Shown in pieces: positions 5,901-22,035 of a stretch of 30,556 nucleotides of DNA (positions are counted from its first letter, which is position 1; the number at the start of each line of letters is the position of its first letter). Origin of the DNA: Ectocarpus siliculosus (taxonomy: Eukaryota > Sar > Phaeophyceae > Ectocarpales > Ectocarpaceae); assembly GCA_000310025.1 (NCBI GenBank), contig FN649759.1, forward strand, positions 60,120-90,675. Reading direction: 5' to 3'. The position numbers were made by a program, and so were the translations under genes. The notes beneath the pieces are model-generated. The model was not told the DNA's origin, made no database searches, and saw only the letters and a program-made list of their open reading frames with translations.

Positions 5901-7100
5901 TTGGCCGGAGGGCTGCCACGACCCCGTCTTCGAAGCCGACTTGGACAACCCGGACGCGACTCGAACACCTGCAGCACTGCTGGCGAAAGGGTTTTCTTGC
6001 GTCCTAGAAGCTGGTGCGAGCCTGATTGTATTTACGCTCGAGAGGCTCTTAGCGGTTGTTTGTCGAACGTTCTCAAGTTCATGTTGCTGCGTGGATGCCC
6101 GTCGTTTGCGAAGGCCATAGTCGATGCTGGCAACGCCATCCTAGCGCGCCAGGACGTGTTTCGACTGAGCACGGTGTATTTCGTACATGATGCTGTCGGT
6201 CGCTGAGTTGATCTGCTCGGTCTTGTGCTTGCCCGGCTTGATGAGCACGTAGTAGGGAGACTCTACACGTACTCAGATTGGCACTGTAGCGATCTAGTTT
6301 GTCTCATTGCTGTCACGTTCGGAGGCGTGGCCCCACAAATTCCCGTGCTACTTTGATGTCGCGGAGTATGCCACGGTGTCCCTTTAAGAGACGCACGCTT
6401 CTTGTTGCGCTTGCGACCAGGTGACCTGTTATTTGTGCCGGCTGGCTGCCCGCACCGTGTGGAGAACCTGACAGGCACGCTTGCTCTTTCGTGCAACTAT
6501 GTGGACGCTACCAACATCGACATGTCACTGGCAGCCCTCCAAGACCAGGCGAGAACATCAAAAGCTTTGGCAGAAGATGCAGCGGAAATATTGCTCTTTC
6601 TCCCTCGTCGCTCTCTTGTCCATACCTGAACGCGCTATTGTCAGACGATTGTTTCACCAAACTTCAGTTTAGTTAAACACTTGCTGTTTCGTTTGTCTCC
6701 CCGGACATTCATTAAAACACGCATGCTCAAGCCATGGTTGCCTGCTCTGCGGTAGCGACGACGTGTCTTCAGGGTTAAGCGTGCCGAAAAGCGCGAGAAC
6801 CCGGCAGCCACGCCAGGTTGGAACCCTCACTTGTTTTAGGACTACGTGGACGTTAGCGCGACCGCATCAGGCCCGGCCATTGGATACCCGTCACTATTTA
6901 GCCCATGGCAACGTGAACCCTTCTTGTCGTCGTCGCCTCAGGCCTTTACGGACCCTCAAGCTGCCGCGCTGGCATCAGCTCTGGGCAATTGCAACCGAAA
7001 GTTGGCCCGTCGACAGGAGGAAGTGCCGTGGACGATGCTCAAGAAATGGCCACGAGAAGGCGAGGTTGCTGAATGGCTGCCGAACCCCCGGGTCCAGTAA
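2931..7100 (+). CDS. JmjC/cupin-8 domain Fe(II)/2-oxoglutarate-dependent oxygenase
   Basis: Nine exons fit by phase: 2931-2995, 3182-3523, 3995-4142, 4369-4776 (or from 4414), 5060-5127, 5505-5567, 5817-6013, 6421 to about 6617, and 6840-7100; about 582 residues. The N-terminus (about residues 1-135) is Arg/Ser-rich and has no family match that I recognise. Residues about 137-185 hold the domain entry (YEDFIETYALRGRPVVLKGG). The catalytic core is easy to read: YLHDWSLPQN, VPKFFAGDLLQRL, WPSLFIGPKGSRSDTHIDSF with metal ligands H360 and D362, FWMALLEGKKRW with the likely 2-oxoglutarate lysine, and DLLFVPAGCPHRVEN with the distal ligand H442. An intact HxD...H triad argues for an active hydroxylase or demethylase; the substrate (protein or RNA) cannot be told. 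The exon 8 to 9 junction is unresolved: no good in-phase donor is visible, and exon 8 could instead stop at 6629. The start is the first ATG of an open exon after a purine-rich context. Confidence 0.88.
5452..5490 (+). repeat. CTG/TTG triplet array before the HxD exon of the JmjC gene
   Basis: CTGCTGTTGTG units repeat imperfectly, ending about 14 nt before the AG at 5503-5504 that opens the HxD exon. The array lies inside the intron in the sense orientation and probably supplies the pyrimidine tract. Confidence 0.7.
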
Positions 7101-12050: not shown

Positions 12051-13806
12051 CCTGCGCGTCTGGGGCTGTGAATGTGTGACTCAAAACAAAATCGTGGATG
12101 GATCATGCTTGTCCACGCAGCCGTGAGGGGGGGTCCAACTATCCTCTGTGTGCCCCCGCCGTTATCCCATTTGATATTTGTTCCCATTAGATATCCCACC
12201 AATCCCGCGCCCCCCACCAACCCTCAGCCCCCAACGGGCATCTATTATAGACGTCTAGACACCCCGTGGCGTACCCCTTCATTCCCCGCTTGTCCGCGGT
12301 TTGTTGTGCCGGGGTGGCTTGTTTGCGTGTGTTGCTGCCATTTTCTGGTCCTCATCGCGAGGACGTAAATATCAATGATATCACACAGAAATCGCGACAT
12401 ATTCGGAAAGCTCGATGTCCTCTTTCTTATCTACAGCAAAGAGTGGCGGGGTGTCGAAAATGTCGGCGTTGGAATCGGTCTCGTCTGGAGCTTGCCGAAA
12501 ACGTATCGTTGTTCACATATGTCCTCTTCGTCGCGGAGTTATCGACGTTTCTTTGAAAGTGGCTCAAATGGGGGTGTGTGGTATCTCATCTCCCCTACCT
12601 ACTGGTCGGGCTCCACGGCAGCGCGGAACAGGATTGATTCGGAGTTTGCTCGACGATGGGACCTGTGCCCGAGACGCATGCCCTTAGCGCTATCTCTTGC
12701 CCCACAAAGGCGACAAAATGGAGCCAATTCACGTGCCTGTCGCAAAGGCATTTCCTCTACTACTTCATGATGACAAATCCCTCTTCTTGCTGTCGTCAAC
12801 GTCTCTTTAAATCACAGTGACCACTTCAGCAGAAGTCTGCTAAGCCTGTGGCGGTGAACACCCAGCGGTGAAAAACCACACTACAGAAATATCTCCTGTT
12901 TACCTACTTTGTACACATCATCAGTGCAGGCGCGGGCGTCGTGTTTTGTGGGGGTGGGAAAGTCCCGTAACGTCCAAAAACCCGAACATGCCAGCGACGA
13001 GGCACACGCGACAACGGGAGGGCAGGCACCGTCAGCCGTATGCCATGGCTTGTTGGAGTTCAGAGTCGCAAGAAGATCGTCTCGAAGAGCTTGGTAATCT
13101 CTTATGACTTGCACATCGTCTACATAGTTATCGCTTTATTATCGTCCACATACGCGTGTCGTTTTTTAGAGAAAAAGCTCTTTGACAACGCTCAACGCTT
13201 TTCCACACATGTTTCCAAAAGCGGAACTGCTGTGCTCACAACGGTGCGCGGCGTGTAGGCGGCAACAGCCACAACGCACCCACAACCGAATTGCCATTGT
13301 CAAGTGCAACAGGCATGCAACGGCCGCCACCAATCTCTCTACTCTTACCCCTCTCAACTGCCCTTTTCCCGTTCCCCTTTGCAATATTTCCGGGTTTGCT
13401 CGCTGAGGCCGTCAAGGGGCGCATCCAACGAGGTCACTACAAGCCCGAGCACTCCACGATGGGACCCTGACGTGTGAATATATCACACCGTTTGCCGGGA
13501 AACGAGTGTGCGCATCACGCATCCGGGTCCCCCCTTCTCTAGCACCTGTGCACGCGTTTCACGAAACGGAACGAAAAGAGTAACCCAGTGGGAGGAGAAC
13601 TGGTGAGCAAAGAGAACCGGTGAGCAAACAGCAGTAGTGAATCGTATTTGAGCTCTTCCAAACGACAAAAAAACATCAGCAACAACGGAAAAATCGCAAA
13701 CATCGAAAGAAACGTTGCGATACCGCACACACACTGAAAGCATCGAGAACCTATTATACTACGATAATAGTAGGAGGGAAAGAGAGGGGCTCCAACGAAC
13801 AAATCA

Positions 13807-14160
13807 ACCCCCCCCCCCCCCCCCCCTAATGCAAAAAAGTTTGGGAATAGAATTGGGGTTTTGTTGGTTGGGAAAGAAGTTTTAAAAAAGGGGGGCCCCG
13901 GCGGGGTTTGGCATTGGGGTTGGGGGGTTTTTGCTTGGGAAGGAAGTTTTAAAAAAAAGCGAATAATTTGTGAGGTTGGGAAACAAGGTAAAGGTTTTTT
14001 TTTGGCTCTGGTTTTTTTGGTTTTGGGGGAAAAAAGAAAGGGGGGGGAAGAAAATAAGGTTGGGGGGGGCGAAAAACCTTAATTCCCGAAAAAGGGAAAA
14101 AAGGAAGTTTGGTTAAAATGGGTAAGGACCCTTGAAGGAATTAAAAAGGGGTTTTAAATG
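13807..14160. other. Low-quality contig tail, degraded copy of about 14764-15110
   Basis: After a run of about 22 C, the text reads as a homopolymer-smeared version of the sequence that follows the poly-C run at 14764-14782. For example, TTTGGCATTGGGGTTGGG matches TTTGCCATCGGGGTTGGG, and AAGGACCCTTGAAGGAATTA matches AAGCACCCTCGAGGCAGTTA. This is typical of reads failing beyond a homopolymer. Any open frame in it is spurious. Confidence 0.88.
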
Positions 14161-14260
14161 NNNNNNNNNNNNNNNNNNNNNNNNNNNNNNNNNNNNNNNN
14201 NNNNNNNNNNNNNNNNNNNNNNNNNNNNNNNNNNNNNNNNNNNNNNNNNNNNNNNNNNNN
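14161..14260. other. Assembly gap of 100 N
   Basis: Exactly 100 N, the usual placeholder for a gap of unknown size. The flanking sequences indicate that the two contigs actually overlap. Confidence 0.99.
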
Positions 14261-14783
14261 GTGCAACAGGCATGAAACGCCCCCCACAATTTTTTTTTTT
14301 TTTCCCCTTTTAAATTCCCTTTTTCCCTTTCCCTTTTGAAATTTTTCCGGTTTTCCTCGCGGAGCCCTCCAAGGGGCCCTTCCAAGGGGGTCATTACAAC
14401 CCGGACCCTTCCAGGAGGGGCCCCTGAGGTGGAAATTTTCCCCCCCTTTTCCGGGAAAAGGGGTGGGCGCATCACCCTTCGGGTTCCCCCTTTTTTTACC
14501 CCCTGGCCCCGTTTTTCAGAAAAGGGAAAAAAAAGGTTACCCCAGGGGGGGGAAAATTGGTGACAAAAGAAACCCGGGGACCAAACCCCATTAGTAATTT
14601 TTTTTTGGTTTTTTCCAACCGAAAAAAAAACTTCCCCACCACGGAAAAATTCCCAAACTTGAAAAAAAACGTTGGGTTCCCCCCCCCCCCCTAAAACCTT
14701 GGAAACCTTTTTTTTTTCCGTTATTATTGGGGGGAAAAGAGGGGGGTTCCAAGAAAAAAATCACCCCCCCCCCCCCCCCCCCG
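14261..14783. other. Low-quality contig head, degraded copy of about 13300-13828
   Basis: It begins GTGCAACAGGCATGAAACG, matching GTGCAACAGGCATGCAACG at about 13301, and follows that region collinearly to the poly-C run with widespread homopolymer errors. CTCGCGGAGCCCTCCAAGGG matches CTCGCTGAGGCCGTCAAGGG, and the TTATTATTGGGGGGAAAAGA block matches ATAATAGTAGGAGGGAAAGA. Confidence 0.88.
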
Positions 14784-15078
14784 TAGCGCAACGATGTTTG
14801 CCATCGGAGTTGGGTTTTCGTCGCTTGGCAACGACGTTGTAAAACAGGCCGCCCCCGCCGGTGTTTGCCATCGGGGTTGGGTGTTCGTCGCTTGGCAGCG
14901 ATGTTGTAAAACAAGCCGATCACTTCGTGAGCTCGGCAACCAGGTTACCGCTTTTTTTTTGCCTCTGTTTTTTTTGTTTTTGCGGTAACCATGAATGGTG
15001 GTCGAGTAGATTATGTTGTGCGGGGTCGAGAACCCTCACTCCGCGCAAAGGGGATAACCGCACGTTGTGTTAAATCGG

Positions 15079-18000
15079 TCAAGCACCCTCGAGGCAGTTA
15101 CACAGCGCTTCCAACTGTCTCTGGAAGTGAAAGCGCCAGAAAATAAATTAAGTCATACGCAGCTGTCATCCGCAACCAAGGAAGTAAGCACAAGATGCCG
15201 AACACCCCTCGCAGGATGCAGCGCACCCTTCATGCGACTCGCCGAATACCTCACGGCGCTTCGCGCTTGGTGATGTGAGAGCCCGGTCCGGTGAGAACCC
15301 GGCGTGCTCCGTCCCGGCATTTGTAGGGATGCGAGGTCAATGGTCTAACGACTACGGCATGCACGACTATGAGTACACCCCCCCCCCCCCCCCCCGCCGC
15401 TTGAAACACTTGCCGCCCATGGAAACACTCCCCAAAACCCCCAACGCACCTTCGCGTGCCACTTGAACAGCGGCCCGTTGTTGCGAGGCATCCCCAGGCC
15501 CTTGTAGACGTACTTGACGAGGACGTCGATCTCGTCCAAGGACAGACCGGCCAGGCAGTTCTCTATCTGGTCCTCGCGGACCCCCGTGAGCACCATCAAT
15601 ACGCACTCCGTGCTCTTAGCCTGGTTCGCGGGGAGGACATGAGATGGGGAGTTGGGTCACTGGTCTATACCCGGGTACGTGTGGGATGGGAAGTTGGGTC
15701 ACTGGTCTACACTCGGATACGGGGAGGGTACTTGTATGAACAACCGGGAGGGAAGTTGGGTCAACGGTCTACACTCGGATACGGGGAGGGTACGGGCAAC
15801 CGCGGTGGGGAGTTGGGTCACTGGTTATACCCGGATGTACGAGGATGTTACGAGCAACCGGGACGGGGAGTTGGCTACTGATCAACACCCAGGTACGGGG
15901 AGGATATCGACAACCTTGATGAGAAGTTGGGTCACTGATCTTACTCGCATGCGGGTAGGGTATACGCAACAGGGATGGGTAGTATCATGAACCCAGATAC
16001 GGGGACGGTATGAGCAACCGAGATGGGGAGTTGGCTACTGATCTACTTCTAATCCGAATACGGGGAGGTTATGAGATGGGAAGTTGGGTCACTGGTCATA
16101 TAACCCGCTTCGGACCCGTCGGTGCTGGCTCCGAGACGATTGAACCCGCGGGTGCTCGACCCGGATCCCAAGAAAATGAAGGACATGACGTTTTGACACG
16201 TAAATCGAGTGAACCAAGGGGGGTGTCTTACGCATGCACCGCCAAAGGGATATATGATGCGGTCCATCACGATGCACGTCCAGCTAAATAGTTTCAATTT
16301 CCTTCCATATCAAACGCCTGTAGGGGGGAGGCAAGAACGCACCGGTTATGCGTTTGCAAGATAAGCACCAACCACCCCCCCCCCCAAGTCGCTGTAATCA
16401 ATACCACAAGACGAGCGAAATCAATCAAGTCAACTCGTCCAACCTTGACGGCTTCGTCCTTGCAGAAGATAGGCGGGTCCTCGAGCGATTTCCGGAGCGC
16501 CCCGCCGGGGTCTCTGTGCAGCATCCCCCGCACAGCCGTCTGTCATTCGAACCGACAAGAGAGCTGGGTTAAAGTCACGGCAAAACAGGAGGTGGTGCTA
16601 CACGCATAGCACGTGGTCTTCTGAGCGTCTGGTCCGTCTTCTACAATACATCCAAGATGTTCCTTCGTCCGTTCCCAAAACAAACAACGCCCGCCTTTTG
16701 AACTGAGCTCCTCGTGACACACAACAACGTTCTTGAAAAAACAAGCACGTGCTCTCACCTCTCGTTGCTGCACCTCGCCCATAGCCGCAGGGTCAGACAC
16801 CGCGCCCGGGACCTTGCTCGGTGCTCCCGCGCCCCCTCCTCCGACCACAGGGGGCTGGTAACCCCCCCCCGAGGCGGCAGCAGGCGGGGGCGGCGAGTAC
16901 CCCTGCTGCGAGGACGGCGGTGAAGCGCTCCTGTACTGCTGCACCGGCGCCAACGCAGCCGGTGCCGGTGCCGCCACGGGGGGGTTGTACCTTCCCCCTC
17001 CGCCGCCGTACTGCGCCGCGGCGGGAGGCTGGTACGCCGCGGCCGGCGGCGGGGGGACGGCAGCCGGTACCGGGGGCGAGTAAGGGGCCGGCGCCGGCGC
17101 CGGCGGCGACGAGCTGAAGGTAGACCGCAGCCCCGTGTAGGGCTCCGCGGCAGGCTGTGATGACGGAGGGGGCGGGGGCTGGGCCGCGGGAGTCACTTTC
17201 CGGAGCGCGACCGTAGGCGCGGCCGGCGGGATGTGCGCGGCCGGCGTGTAGGACGGGATCGCCGGGGCGGGGGGCTGGTATCCCGACGATGGGGGAGACG
17301 TCGCCGCCGGTGCCGGGGGTTGATACCCGTACGATGATGAGGCCGGGGGCGGGGGAGGCGAGCTCGCTGCTGCCGGTGTCGGCGGAGGCGGGGGCTGGTA
17401 ACCTCCCGTGGGCGCTGCCGGGGCAGGGGGCTGGTACTGGTAGCTCGAGGAGGCGGAGGGGACCGGGGGCGGGGGCTGGTACCCTCCCTGGATTGCGGCT
17501 GGCTGCTGTGGGAGCGGGCGACAAGGCGGGCGAAGGGAGAGAAAACTGCAAATCATAAGTTACGGCGATGGTGACAGCGTTGCCCACCATTCATGTACAC
17601 AGCAGTTGGGGCATGCGTTTTGCGTGACTAAACCTACAGCTATAAGTACATCCATGCTTACACCACACAACTGTAGATGGTGACAACATGCTCACAAATA
17701 AAGCGTCTCCAATATCGTCTCCCAAAGTGCTAACCGCTACATACCACGACGCCTACATCTGTACACCGTACCGGCGGCGGCGGCGGCTGGGACCTCGGCA
17801 CTGCCGGCGGGGCAGGGGGCTGGTAGCTCGGCACCGCCGGGGGGGCCGGTGGTTGGTAGCTTGGCACCGCCGGCGGGGCGGGGGGATGGTAGGCAGACGG
17901 CACCGGGGGGGGCGGCGGCGAGGAGCTCGGTATCAGCGACGGCCCCCGCGCCGCCGGCGCTGAGTGCGCCAGCATCGGCCGGACGCCGCCGGGGACCGGC

Positions 18001-18293
18001 GGGGGCGAGCTCATCGGCACGGGCGGCGGCGAGGCTCCCGGCACCGAAGGGGGCCCCCGGCTTGGAACGGGCGGCGGAGGGGGGGACACTCCCGTCCGCG
18101 GGGGGCCGTAAGACGGCACCGGCGGCGGCGCCGCAGCGGGGATGGACGGAGGAGCGGAGCTGGGGATTGGCGGGGGGCCGGCAGACGGGACGGGTGGCGG
18201 CGGTGGTGCTGAACCTGGGAGTGGCGGGGGTGCTGACCCGGGGAGCGGCGGTGGCCCACGCCGGGGAGGCGGTGGTGGCGGCGGCGCCGACAT
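15079..18293 (-). CDS. ARPC5: Proline-rich protein fused to ARPC5 (Arp2/3 complex p16 subunit)
   Basis: Five exons, all joined in phase 0: 18293-17772, 17505-16759, 16539-16444, 15620-15450 and possibly 15120-15079; 525 residues if all are right. Residues 1-174 are nearly pure Pro/Ala/Ser/Gly with PPPLPGSA and PPPPPVPS motifs. Residues 175-416 carry repeated GYQPPAPA-type units. The C-terminus is a clear ARPC5 domain: GEVQQRE, then MLHRDPGGALRKSLEDPP and CKDEAVK, then VREDQIENCLAGLSLDEIDV and LVKYVYKGLG, ending with KWHAK. ARPC5 is a subunit of the Arp2/3 actin-branching complex and is normally about 150 residues. Polyproline of this kind binds profilin and SH3/WW domains and is usual in WASP/WAVE activators rather than in Arp2/3 subunits. 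ATG 18293 is the first in-frame Met of exon 1. The last exon has a good acceptor (CTTTCACTTCCAG), but its 13 residues do not closely resemble ARPC5 ends. Two separate or alternatively started products remain possible. Confidence 0.8.
15275..15394 (+). repeat. Dispersed poly-C-tailed repeat, copy 1
   Basis: It contains CCCGTCCCGGCAT-like and GCGAGGTCAATGGTCTAACG sequence, then ACTACGGCATGCACGACT, then ATGAGTAC and a C run. It matches the copies at 27098-27192 and 27205-27318 and the inverted copy at about 24838-24920. It lies in the last intron of the ARPC5 gene, on the antisense strand. Confidence 0.8.
15640..16095 (+). repeat. Minisatellite in the third ARPC5 intron
   Basis: About eight imperfect units of roughly 55-60 bp. 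The unit runs approximately GATGGGGAGTTGGGTCACTG, then GTCTACACCCGGATACGGGG, then AGGGTATGAGCAACCGG. Units differ by substitutions and small deletions. The array fills about half of the intron between exons 3 and 4. Confidence 0.9.
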
Positions 18294-19199: not shown

Positions 19200-22035
19200 A
19201 TGATTCGCGCGGTGTCGGGACCGGTAGTGGCTGCGGCGAGGGCGGCCCCCCTGCGCGCGGTGGTGGCGTCAAAGGGCATGTCTTCTTTGGTGCCTTTGGA
19301 TGAGGAGTACATGGGGTGAGTGCGTCGTGGGAGTTCTTGTGAGACCGCGACAGGGCGCGTTGCGACGGCCAACGCGCTCGGTGCGCCAGCGGCGGGTGCA
19401 CGAAACGCTGCCGTTGCTTCTGCTGAAGCTTTGCCTGCTTCCTGTGTCGATGCACACAAGAAGCAGGGATAGTGGATGTTGCGCAACGTGGTGTTTAGCT
19501 GCACCTGCCTCTTGGGGTATACCAAGAAGTGCGTGAGCGTTTCAAGCCCTTTGGGCGTGTGTTGGCAAGGGAGGGGTTCTGTGACGTTGTGTGTGTCTAT
19601 GTTTAGAGAGGATGCATTGCACTCGGGAGCAATCACGCTAGCACGACAGCCCTGGGTGAATCGCGCGAATCTAGCATGCGTGGTACCAGCAACGGTGCTC
19701 TTGGTGTCGTCGCATTGGGTGTGCACATCGTTCGAGGCACCACGCTGCTGTGGGATGCATACATGGTCTACATGCAAATCCACCCCCCCTCAGAGACAGA
19801 TGTACCTGCGAGGGTACCACAGGTAGGGGGCCTGTTTTTGTGCCGGTATATGCCCAGAGAATTGGCCGGCCGTGTACCGGACACTGGGGGCTGTTCGAGT
19901 ACAGAGTGACTTGGTGATTCAGTGTGGTGCCAGCCGAATAGTCCGGCATTTTACCTAGCACCCGCACTAGTAGTCATCCAGCACTAAACAGGGCCCCACT
20001 CCTGTCGCCTACGATACGTGCAGGGAGTGTAGAGCCCTCTTGACCCTCTGGATGAGATTGCTGTACCCGCGTCCGGGTCGTGTTTTGTGCATTCCAACCG
20101 GTTTTTCGTTAACTCTCTGGTGGCGGGATGCTCAGTTGGTGTTGTCGAATGTGAAGCCGTTCTACAATACAATACAATACGCCAGGATGCATTTTTTATT
20201 GTGGGCGCACACCGCCGTTGGTGGGGTTGTTTGCTTGTGACCACGTTAGGCGTCCGCGTCAGTTGTACTGTTATAGGATACTATACTATAGTATAGTATA
20301 GTATAGTACGGACATTAGAAGGTACTGAGCGGAGACCGGAACGGTTTTTGATGTGAAGACAACAACAACAACAACAACAACAACACACACTCCCCCCTTT
20401 TTTTTTTTTTTTCTCTTAGTATGACACAACGAATCCATCTCTATCATAGAGTCTGAGACAGATTAGCAATGAATTCATAGCGTCAGAATGTACCTGTATG
20501 TCTACGGTTTCCCAGACAGCATATAGGGACATCTCCCCTGCGGGTAACAGGCTCAATTTTTGATAATTTTTGATAGATGCCCCGCGCCCCGCCGCATGGT
20601 TACCTAATCCTGCTGTAGTTGCGCCGCCCAAACTTCTGCGCTAAACGGCACCACCACGCAGCACCAGCAACAGTGCCCTGGAGCGGCAACATATTTACTC
20701 CGTTTCAAACCGTGCTCTTTCGAATATGATCACAGCGCAGTTCGCACACCTGCCGCCTGAATGTGCTTCTTCCCACAGCCCCGTTTGCTGCTTGCGAAAG
20801 AGCAGAGAGGATTCATCGGCCTCGTGAATGCTGAGCGATTCGGTTCTGCTGTTCCCCCCCTGTAAAACGTTCATTTCTAGCTGTATGATCTTCGTTGAAG
20901 GCTCCGAGAGTCACGCACACCCGAAACCCAGCCGCCCTGCTTGATTTTGTACCTCGAATAAACTCGAGTTTCGTTTTCGCTAGGGGACTGACTGCTCTGT
21001 GTACGACCAGTGCACGACACACGACACACGATGTCATGATGACCTACTTGGCGTTTCAATAGGAAAGGTATTTACCATCATGGGTGGTGTTCTGTAAGGT
21101 GTGTGTGCTTCTTGTGACGCTCCTTAATCTGAGAGTATGCTGCTTTATAGGTCCTAAGATGGCGGCTACCACTTGCCGGGTGTATTGCCACAGGAGGTGC
21201 GCTATCCGTTGTGGGTGTGACATGACGTAATTTCATGTGTCACCGTAGTCGGAGGGCATATGCGTATGGTTGGATGTCTCACAGAAGGCGTTCCCCGCAC
21301 TCGTATGACAATTCCGTCCCATCGCATGGGAAGAATACAAATCGACCACCGTGATTCCCATCAGTTTTCGACACCTTTCATGGTGACACCCAGCGTATCC
21401 TCTCAACCTCATCGCGTGAGCCCCCCCTCTATAAGTAGTGTTGGGTTTCCAACGCTCGCGCTCGCTCGAGGGCAAGGGGACGGGGGGGAGGGGGGGGGTT
21501 GTGCCCCGTACCCGTATCCGTCCGGCCTGGTGCTAGCGCCAACCGCTGTGTTCCGTGTGCTTTTGTTTCGTCTCCTTGTAGTGTCGCGTTGTTGCTGTTG
21601 CTGTTGCTGCTGCTGATGATGAGACTGTGTTGCTGTTGTTGCTGTTGTTGCTGTTGTTGCTGTTGCTATTGCTGCTGTTGATGATGAGACTATGTTGCTC
21701 TTGTTGCTCTTGTTGATGATGGTGGTGTGTTGTTGATTGATTGATTGTTGTTGTTGCTCTTGTTCCTGACGGTTGTTGCGTCTATTCCGCCGCTGCTCGT
21801 GGTGCGGTTCGGTGCGATCGGTCGGCCGCGTGGCTCCCCCAGGTCTCCGAGCACGATGCCCGCCGCGGCGTCGGCCCCCGTCACCAAGGTGTCCACCCTC
21901 TCCAACGGCGCCAAGGTCATCACCCGCGAGAGCGGCCAGCTGGTATGTAAAATTATGTGCGGACCACGCAGTACGACTACGAGACGGGCAGATTTAGTTG
22001 TTGTTGTCGTCAGGCGGTATTTTGTGTTTGTCGCC

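What the first reader, a model, noticed from the sequence alone, without database searches (positions are those of the whole stretch)
15079..18293. ARPC5 subunit carrying a ~420-residue proline-rich N-terminal domain
The sequence shows two proline-rich exons and two ARPC5 exons on the same strand, all joined by phase-0 GT-AG splices. ARPC5 homology starts exactly where the proline-rich exon ends (GEVQQRE followed by MLHRDPGGALRKSLEDPP). Known ARPC5 proteins are about 150 residues without polyproline; polyproline that recruits profilin-actin normally sits in WASP/WAVE or formin proteins. By inference, this fusion could bring profilin-actin or SH3/WW partners directly to Arp2/3, reducing the need for a separate activator. 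I do not know whether it is already described in stramenopiles.
Basis: partly seen in the sequence, partly recalled or inferred. Interest (0 to 1): 0.75.

Follow-up and report, generated by a model that had tools for sequence, protein, structure and literature searches.

The report
Arp2/3 subunit with proline-rich arm
In what looks like a brown alga, the gene for a small subunit of the actin-branching Arp2/3 machine appears to carry about 410 extra, proline-rich amino acids at its start, of a kind that elsewhere sits on the proteins that switch Arp2/3 on; sequence supports the joined gene, but no RNA has been checked.

Summary
The core observation holds; its 3' end does not. On the minus strand, two proline-rich exons (18293-17772, 17505-16759) run in frame, by phase-0 GT-AG splices, into ARPC5 exons 16539-16444 and 15620-15450. 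The last exon is most likely 13545-13483, not 15120-15079: Pfam P16-Arc rises from 75.2 to 101.4 bits and reaches the last profile position. It lies beyond a 100-N gap flanked by a garbled duplicate. The predicted protein has 532 residues; ARPC5 homology starts at residue 414, ten residues inside the proline-rich exon. One ARPC5 locus was found in the genome. Best reading: an ARPC5 in which the acidic Arp2-contacting N-terminus of animal ARPC5 is replaced by a probably disordered arm with eight runs of five or more prolines, likely binding profilin-actin or SH3 proteins. Main rival: an internal ATG (16782) gives a plain 117-residue ARPC5. No transcript or eukaryotic relative could be searched. 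New variant of a known kind.

The parts
17772..18293 (-). Exon 1: start ATG (18293) and proline-rich residues 1-174 (MSAPPPPPPPRRG...)
   Evidence: GC 0.81 against 0.50 in intron 1; no other in-frame ATG upstream in the open frame to 18521
16759..17505 (-). Exon 2: proline-rich residues 175-413, then residues 414-423 (AAMGEVQQRE), the start of ARPC5 homology
   Evidence: P16-Arc match starts at residue 414; donor 16758 best of 163
16780..16782 (-). Internal in-frame ATG (Met416, context GCGGCTATGG) that could start a plain 117-residue ARPC5
   Evidence: 74.1 bits for the product with the old last exon (protein 10)
16444..16539 (-). Exon 3: ARPC5 residues 424-455; an in-frame TGA (16545-16543) lies just upstream of its acceptor CAG
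15450..15620 (-). Exon 4: ARPC5 residues 456-512
13483..13545 (-). Exon 5 (corrected): VLEKGGPGCVMRTLVSRQTV and stop, the ARPC5 C-terminus; acceptors at 13536 and 13533 would trim it by three or four residues
   Evidence: P16-Arc 75.2 to 101.4 bits and profile end 130 to 150; PDB 1k8k chain G aligned to its last residue
15079..15120 (-). The end implied by the finding's coordinates (RQLEALCNCLEGA), probably intronic
14161..14260 (.). 100-N gap in intron 4; 13304-14160 and 14261-15117 are 71.4% alike over 861 columns, read by me as an assembly duplicate with low-quality ends

Best explanation
One five-exon gene encodes a 532-residue ARPC5. Shown from sequence: residues 414-532 are an ARPC5 core complete to its C-terminus; residues 1-413 are low-charge and proline-rich, in the same open frame. 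Inferred: they are disordered (from composition; no disorder predictor was run); the core sits in the Arp2/3 complex against ARPC4 like other ARPC5s, and the arm projects where animal ARPC5 sends its acidic N-terminus to Arp2 and ARPC1. With that acidic segment missing, the Arp2 contact should be weak, as in the more active human ARPC5L complex. The arm's eight runs of five or more prolines should bind profilin-actin, as formin FH1 or WASP proline regions do, concentrating monomers at the new branch, or bind an SH3 protein that holds the complex at its site. It works alongside the WAVE activator and does not replace it.
For: Phase-0 open frame and splices. Donor 16758 is best of 163. GC steps at the proline-rich exons' splice sites. 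Homology crosses the exon 2/3 junction: real tail 75.2 bits against 68.9-72.4 for four alternative exon tails and 69.6-71.0 for three hand-scrambled tails. An in-frame TGA just before exon 3 rules out plain read-through. Repeats inside the arm: 98 of 98 similar 30-nt windows (24 or more of 30 identical) are shifted by multiples of 3, and 44 of 75 mismatches fall at codon position 3 (nominal P 6e-6, not independent). YQPP occurs in both exons. One ARPC5 locus found. ARPC4, profilin, CYFIP, formin FH2 and ARPC3 matches present. The profilin exon keeps W4 and Y7, with Y where W31 is usual (positions recalled). Swapping ARPC5/ARPC5L N-terminal regions changes human complex activity (PMC7406314, passages); the acidic D15, D17, E18, Y19, D20 region was proposed to sit between Arp2 and ARPC1 (PMC7755917, passages).
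Against: No RNA read, EST or eukaryotic relative could be searched. The real tail beats the best alternative tail by only 2.8 bits (75.2 against 72.4; 101.4 against 98.6). The exon 1 donor (CCG|GTACGG) ranks only sixth of 163 and an in-frame donor 27 bases on scores higher. Other frames in this GC-rich stretch are also long and open. The internal ATG at 16782 sits two residues into the homology. Intron 2 (219 bases) is a multiple of three and open in the exon 2 frame until its TGA at 16545-16543. SH3 motifs are at chance level. The ARPC2 search found nothing, with no control ringing. Exons 4 and 5 lie on opposite sides of an assembly gap. Profilin and SH3 binding are motif inference only.
Confidence: 0.55

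Rival explanations
1. ARPC5 is mainly made as a plain 117-residue protein from the internal ATG at 16782 (MGEVQQRE|TAVRG...), from a transcript starting inside exon 2 or intron 1; the long proline-rich form is a minor isoform or is not made.
For: Met416 lies two residues into the homology and has a strong context, GCGGCTATGG (Kozak rule recalled); its product scores 74.1 against 75.2 bits. The eight ARPC5 sequences matched in the PDB are 143-153 residues long.
Against: The upstream frame has codon-level repeat structure and GC steps at its splice sites. Three in-frame ATGs and no out-of-frame one precede it in the coding part, so scanning from 18293 would rarely reach it.
Confidence: 0.22
2. 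ARPC5 uses a different first exon, for example one ending at donor 18956 (...RRQQQRETEV), skipping the proline-rich exons.
For: That tail gives 72.4 bits, best of four alternatives tested, and its donor GTG|GTGAGA ranks second of 163.
Against: 2.8 bits below the real tail in both calls; low-complexity GAGA-type sequence; it lies about 240 bases from an ATG of a possible divergent plus-strand gene, likely promoter DNA. Only 4 of 163 GT sites were tested as alternatives.
Confidence: 0.06
3. The proline-rich exons are a separate gene whose transcript ends before exon 3, or by retention of intron 2, next to an ARPC5 gene.
For: Exon 2's frame stays open through intron 2 to the TGA at 16545-16543.
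Against: Exon 2 itself carries the start of ARPC5 homology; intron 2 is 219 bases; from exon 3 alone ARPC5 could start only at the ATG at 16524 and then scores 68.2 bits; the strongest donor ends exon 2.
Confidence: 0.07
4. The arm is translated but does not bind profilin; it is a spacer or a tyrosine- and proline-rich condensate-forming or crowding segment.
For: Regular YQPP units (9) and 20 tyrosines; low charge; WW PPxY and EVH1 motifs absent and SH3 motifs at chance.
Against: Runs of five or more P and [LIGAS]PPPPP exceed shuffles (0 and 3 of 2000 reach them).
Confidence: 0.3

Closest known systems
ARPC5 / ARPC5L (p16-Arc)
   Same: P16-Arc profile positions 28-150 matched at 101.4 bits, cut-off 21.9; 39 identical of 102 alignment columns to PDB 1k8k chain G
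   Different: The matched PDB ARPC5 sequences are 143-153 residues; this has a 413-residue proline-rich extension, and profile positions 1-27 are unmatched, where animal ARPC5 has the acidic N-terminus proposed to bind Arp2/ARPC1 (PMC7755917, passages)
WASP/WAVE proline-rich region, including the two-WH2 WAVE of Ectocarpus (PMC3298513, passages)
   Same: Long proline-rich stretch in an Arp2/3-linked protein; this genome has a WAVE-like gene of that kind (L003)
   Different: Here the stretch is on an Arp2/3 subunit; Pfam reports no WH2 in it and acidic residues are nearly absent
Formin FH1 (recalled)
   Same: Repeated runs of five or more prolines, which bind profilin in formins
   Different: No FH2; Pfam reports only P16-Arc
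Atypical malaria Arp2/3 complex (PMC13340494, abstract start in a listing)
   Same: Lineage-specific change of Arp2/3 composition
   Different: [quoted passage not shown] here one subunit gains an arm

Membership tests
ARPC5 (p16-Arc) | P16-Arc profile above the curated cut-off | tested here: met
   101.4 bits against 21.9
ARPC5 (p16-Arc) | Complete C-terminal region (packs on ARPC4 in human complexes, PMC7406314, passages) | tested here: met
   Corrected exon 5 aligns to profile position 150 and to the last residue of 1k8k_G; packing itself not testable
ARPC5 (p16-Arc) | Acidic N-terminal segment contacting Arp2/ARPC1 (a feature of animal ARPC5, not taken here as required of every member) | tested here: not met
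   One D and three E in residues 1-423; profile positions 1-27 unmatched
ARPC5 (p16-Arc) | Assembly into the Arp2/3 complex | not testable with these tools
   Other subunits: ARPC4 and ARPC3 found; ARPC2 gave no candidate and no control rang; Arp2, Arp3 and ARPC1 not searched
WASP/WAVE-type activator | WH2-central-acidic (VCA) region | tested here: not met
   Pfam at E up to 1 reports only P16-Arc in the 525-residue version that holds the whole proline-rich part; no match to a simple WH2 pattern in residues 1-423
Profilin ligand (FH1-like) | Runs of five or more prolines above composition | tested here: met
   8 against a shuffle mean of 1.78; 0 of 2000 shuffles reach it
Profilin ligand (FH1-like) | Measured profilin binding | not testable with these tools
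   none

The most novel reading that the evidence does not exclude
An Arp2/3 complex with a built-in FH1-like arm: each branch nucleus brings its own profilin-actin store, so that nucleation and first elongation are coupled inside the complex, while WAVE still triggers it.
Probability: 0.2. Interest if true: 0.75.

Novelty: new variant of a known kind. Interest (0 to 1): 0.5.

Why it matters
Proline-rich, profilin-binding stretches are normally on Arp2/3 activators or formins (recalled; for the WASP family also PMC3298513, passages). On a core subunit, the stretch would join monomer supply to every branch and would change the very ARPC5 end that tunes complex activity in humans (PMC7406314, passages). 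Fucoid brown-algal zygotes use Arp2/3 for polarity, and what activates it there is named as an open question in PMC4261725 (passages), so a modified core complex would be directly testable.

Tried and rejected
Exon 15120-15079 as the last exon: rejected. A scan of 39 phase-0 candidate last exons between 15449 and 12500 (stop within 30 codons, at least 8 residues) put the exon at 13545 first (46 against 11 on BLOSUM62 with four recalled ARPC5 tails), and Pfam then supported it. Relatives: genome contigs and viral contigs gave none (24 and 17 pattern matches, none confirmed); these hold prokaryotes and viruses, so this says nothing about algae; no eukaryotic collection was on hand. Second copy of the proline-rich part: I searched 165 of its 423 residues (the end of exon 2) in the genome; the only match is the locus itself (54 candidates scored); exon 1 was not searched. 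I fetched stretches at the ARPC3 and ARPC4 matches (L004-L006) to see whether those subunits also have long N-termini; the translations did not settle their starts, so I draw nothing from them. Print: searches list no paper whose title or shown abstract start describes a proline-rich ARPC5; the lists were partly capped (for example 20 of 70 papers, 8 of 8,327, 12 of 56), papers were seen only as listings or passages, and supplements were not searched. PMC4501334 (passages) gave subunit losses in apicomplexans, nothing on this. A bacterial promoter scan upstream found nothing and is not meaningful here.

Full report
Observation. The minus strand holds an exon with an ATG at 18293 encoding MSAPPPPPPPRRG..., ending at 17772 before GTACGG, and a second exon 17505-16759 ending GAG|GTGAGA. 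Both are phase 0 and together encode 423 residues, 153 of them proline. They run in frame into 16539-16444 (TAVRGMLHRDPGG...) and 15620-15450. Pfam finds only P16-Arc (PF04699) in the joined protein, and PDB ARPC5 chains match. Of 163 GT dinucleotides between 19300 and 16541, the exon 2 donor scores best on a consensus I recalled; the exon 1 donor is sixth, and 17744, in frame 27 bases further on, is third. In 60-base blocks GC drops by 0.20 to 0.33 across the exon 1 donor, exon 2 acceptor and exon 2 donor, but not across the exon 4 ends.

Where homology begins. The P16-Arc match starts at residue 414, ten residues before the end of exon 2. With the old last exon, the real tail gives 75.2 bits. 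Four alternative tails (donors 18956, 17744, 18543, 17771) give 72.4, 68.9, 70.0 and 69.2; three hand-scrambled tails give 71.0, 69.6 and 70.3; starting at Met416 gives 74.1; starting at the exon 3 Met gives 68.2. With the corrected last exon the real tail gives 101.4, against 95.2 without it, 98.6 with the 18956 tail and 95.4 with exon 2 skipped. The margin is small but always in one direction. The TGA just before the exon 3 acceptor means ARPC5 cannot be read straight through from intron 2.

Corrected 3' end. The reported end (15120-15079, RQLEALCNCLEGA) leaves the last 20 profile positions unmatched. A scan for phase-0 last exons found VLEKGGPGCVMRTLVSRQTV-stop at 13545-13483 after an AG. 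It brings the match to position 150 of 150 and adds 26.2 bits; PDB 1k8k chain G (bovine, recalled) then aligns to its last residue, 39 identical of 102 columns. The stretch between exons 4 and 5 holds 100 N (14161-14260), with 13304-14160 and 14261-15117 71.4% alike over 861 columns. I take this as two overlapping contig ends that were not merged, each carrying a low-quality copy of the other; intron 4 is then nearer 0.95 kb than 1.9 kb (inference). The gene model has 532 residues.

Is the proline-rich frame real coding? In its 1,269 bases, 98 of 98 pairs of similar 30-base windows lie a multiple of three apart, and 44 of 75 mismatches between them fall at codon position 3. The nominal binomial P is 6e-6, but the pairs are not independent. 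YQPP units occur in both exons. All four ATGs in this stretch are in frame. Against this, other frames here are also long and open. The end of exon 2 (165 residues) has no second copy in the genome that the search could find.

Genome context. The 189-Mb genome has 87 light-harvesting (PF00504) matches, ARPC4 (3 matches), ARPC3 (2), a profilin exon (1), formin FH2 (3, two over the cut-off), CYFIP (8 on one contig) and SH3 (2). ARPC2 gave none, with no control ringing. One WH2 match lies in a proline-rich locus with, by eye, a second WH2-like start and an acidic C-terminus ending SDWDDG. Kollmar and others report that WAVE of Ectocarpus has two WH2 domains (PMC3298513, passages). I therefore take the genome as a brown alga or near kin (inference; no species test was made) and conclude that a WAVE-type activator exists. 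A review also names Scar/WAVE homologues in Ectocarpus as the likely route to Arp2/3 (PMC4261725, passages).

Mechanism. In human complexes the ARPC5 N-terminus contacts Arp2, and hybrids with the ARPC5L N-terminal region are more active (PMC7406314, passages). In branch junctions the acidic residues D15, D17, E18, Y19 and D20 were proposed to sit between ARPC1 and Arp2 (PMC7755917, passages). [quoted passage not shown] The algal protein has one D and three E in its first 423 residues, three of these four at 412-423. I expect a loose, ARPC5L-like N-terminus with added profilin-type proline runs. Motif counts favour profilin over WW PPxY and EVH1 and are neutral on SH3. None of this has been measured.

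What remains open. Without RNA or a second alga, the strongest rival is translation from Met416, which would give a plain ARPC5. I put the long fused protein as a real product at about 0.75, and the profilin or SH3 role, given the fusion, at about 0.7 in one form or the other; the combined statement stands at 0.55.

Noticed in passing
window 13304-15117: Probable assembly artefact: 100-N gap with a 71%-identical, homopolymer-rich duplicate on its two sides; intron 4 of the gene is probably inflated by about 0.96 kb.
   Followed up: yes
L003 (G000:C9:2336245-2336310): WAVE-like locus: proline-rich open frames, WH2 (LLASITNGKKLKKV), a second WH2-like start (ELLAAIR) and an acidic SDWDDG C-terminus, as described for Ectocarpus WAVE.
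   Followed up: partly
G000 contigs C92, C232, C488: 20 of 87 light-harvesting matches share one score (127.6 bits), 18 of them on these three contigs, often a few kb apart: a recent gene array or an assembly repeat.
   Followed up: no
window 19200-19316 (+): Open frame MIRAVSGPVVAAARAAPLRAVVASKGMSS... that by eye looks like a mitochondrial targeting start of a divergent gene; no Pfam hit for this piece.
   Followed up: partly
window 6357-6626 (+): Cupin/JmjC-like open frame; of seven Pfam matches only AraC_binding passes its cut-off, by 0.6 bits.
   Followed up: partly
window 15640-16110 (-): Intron 3 holds imprecise repeats of the type ACCAGTGACCCAACT...CCCCGTA (by eye).
   Followed up: no
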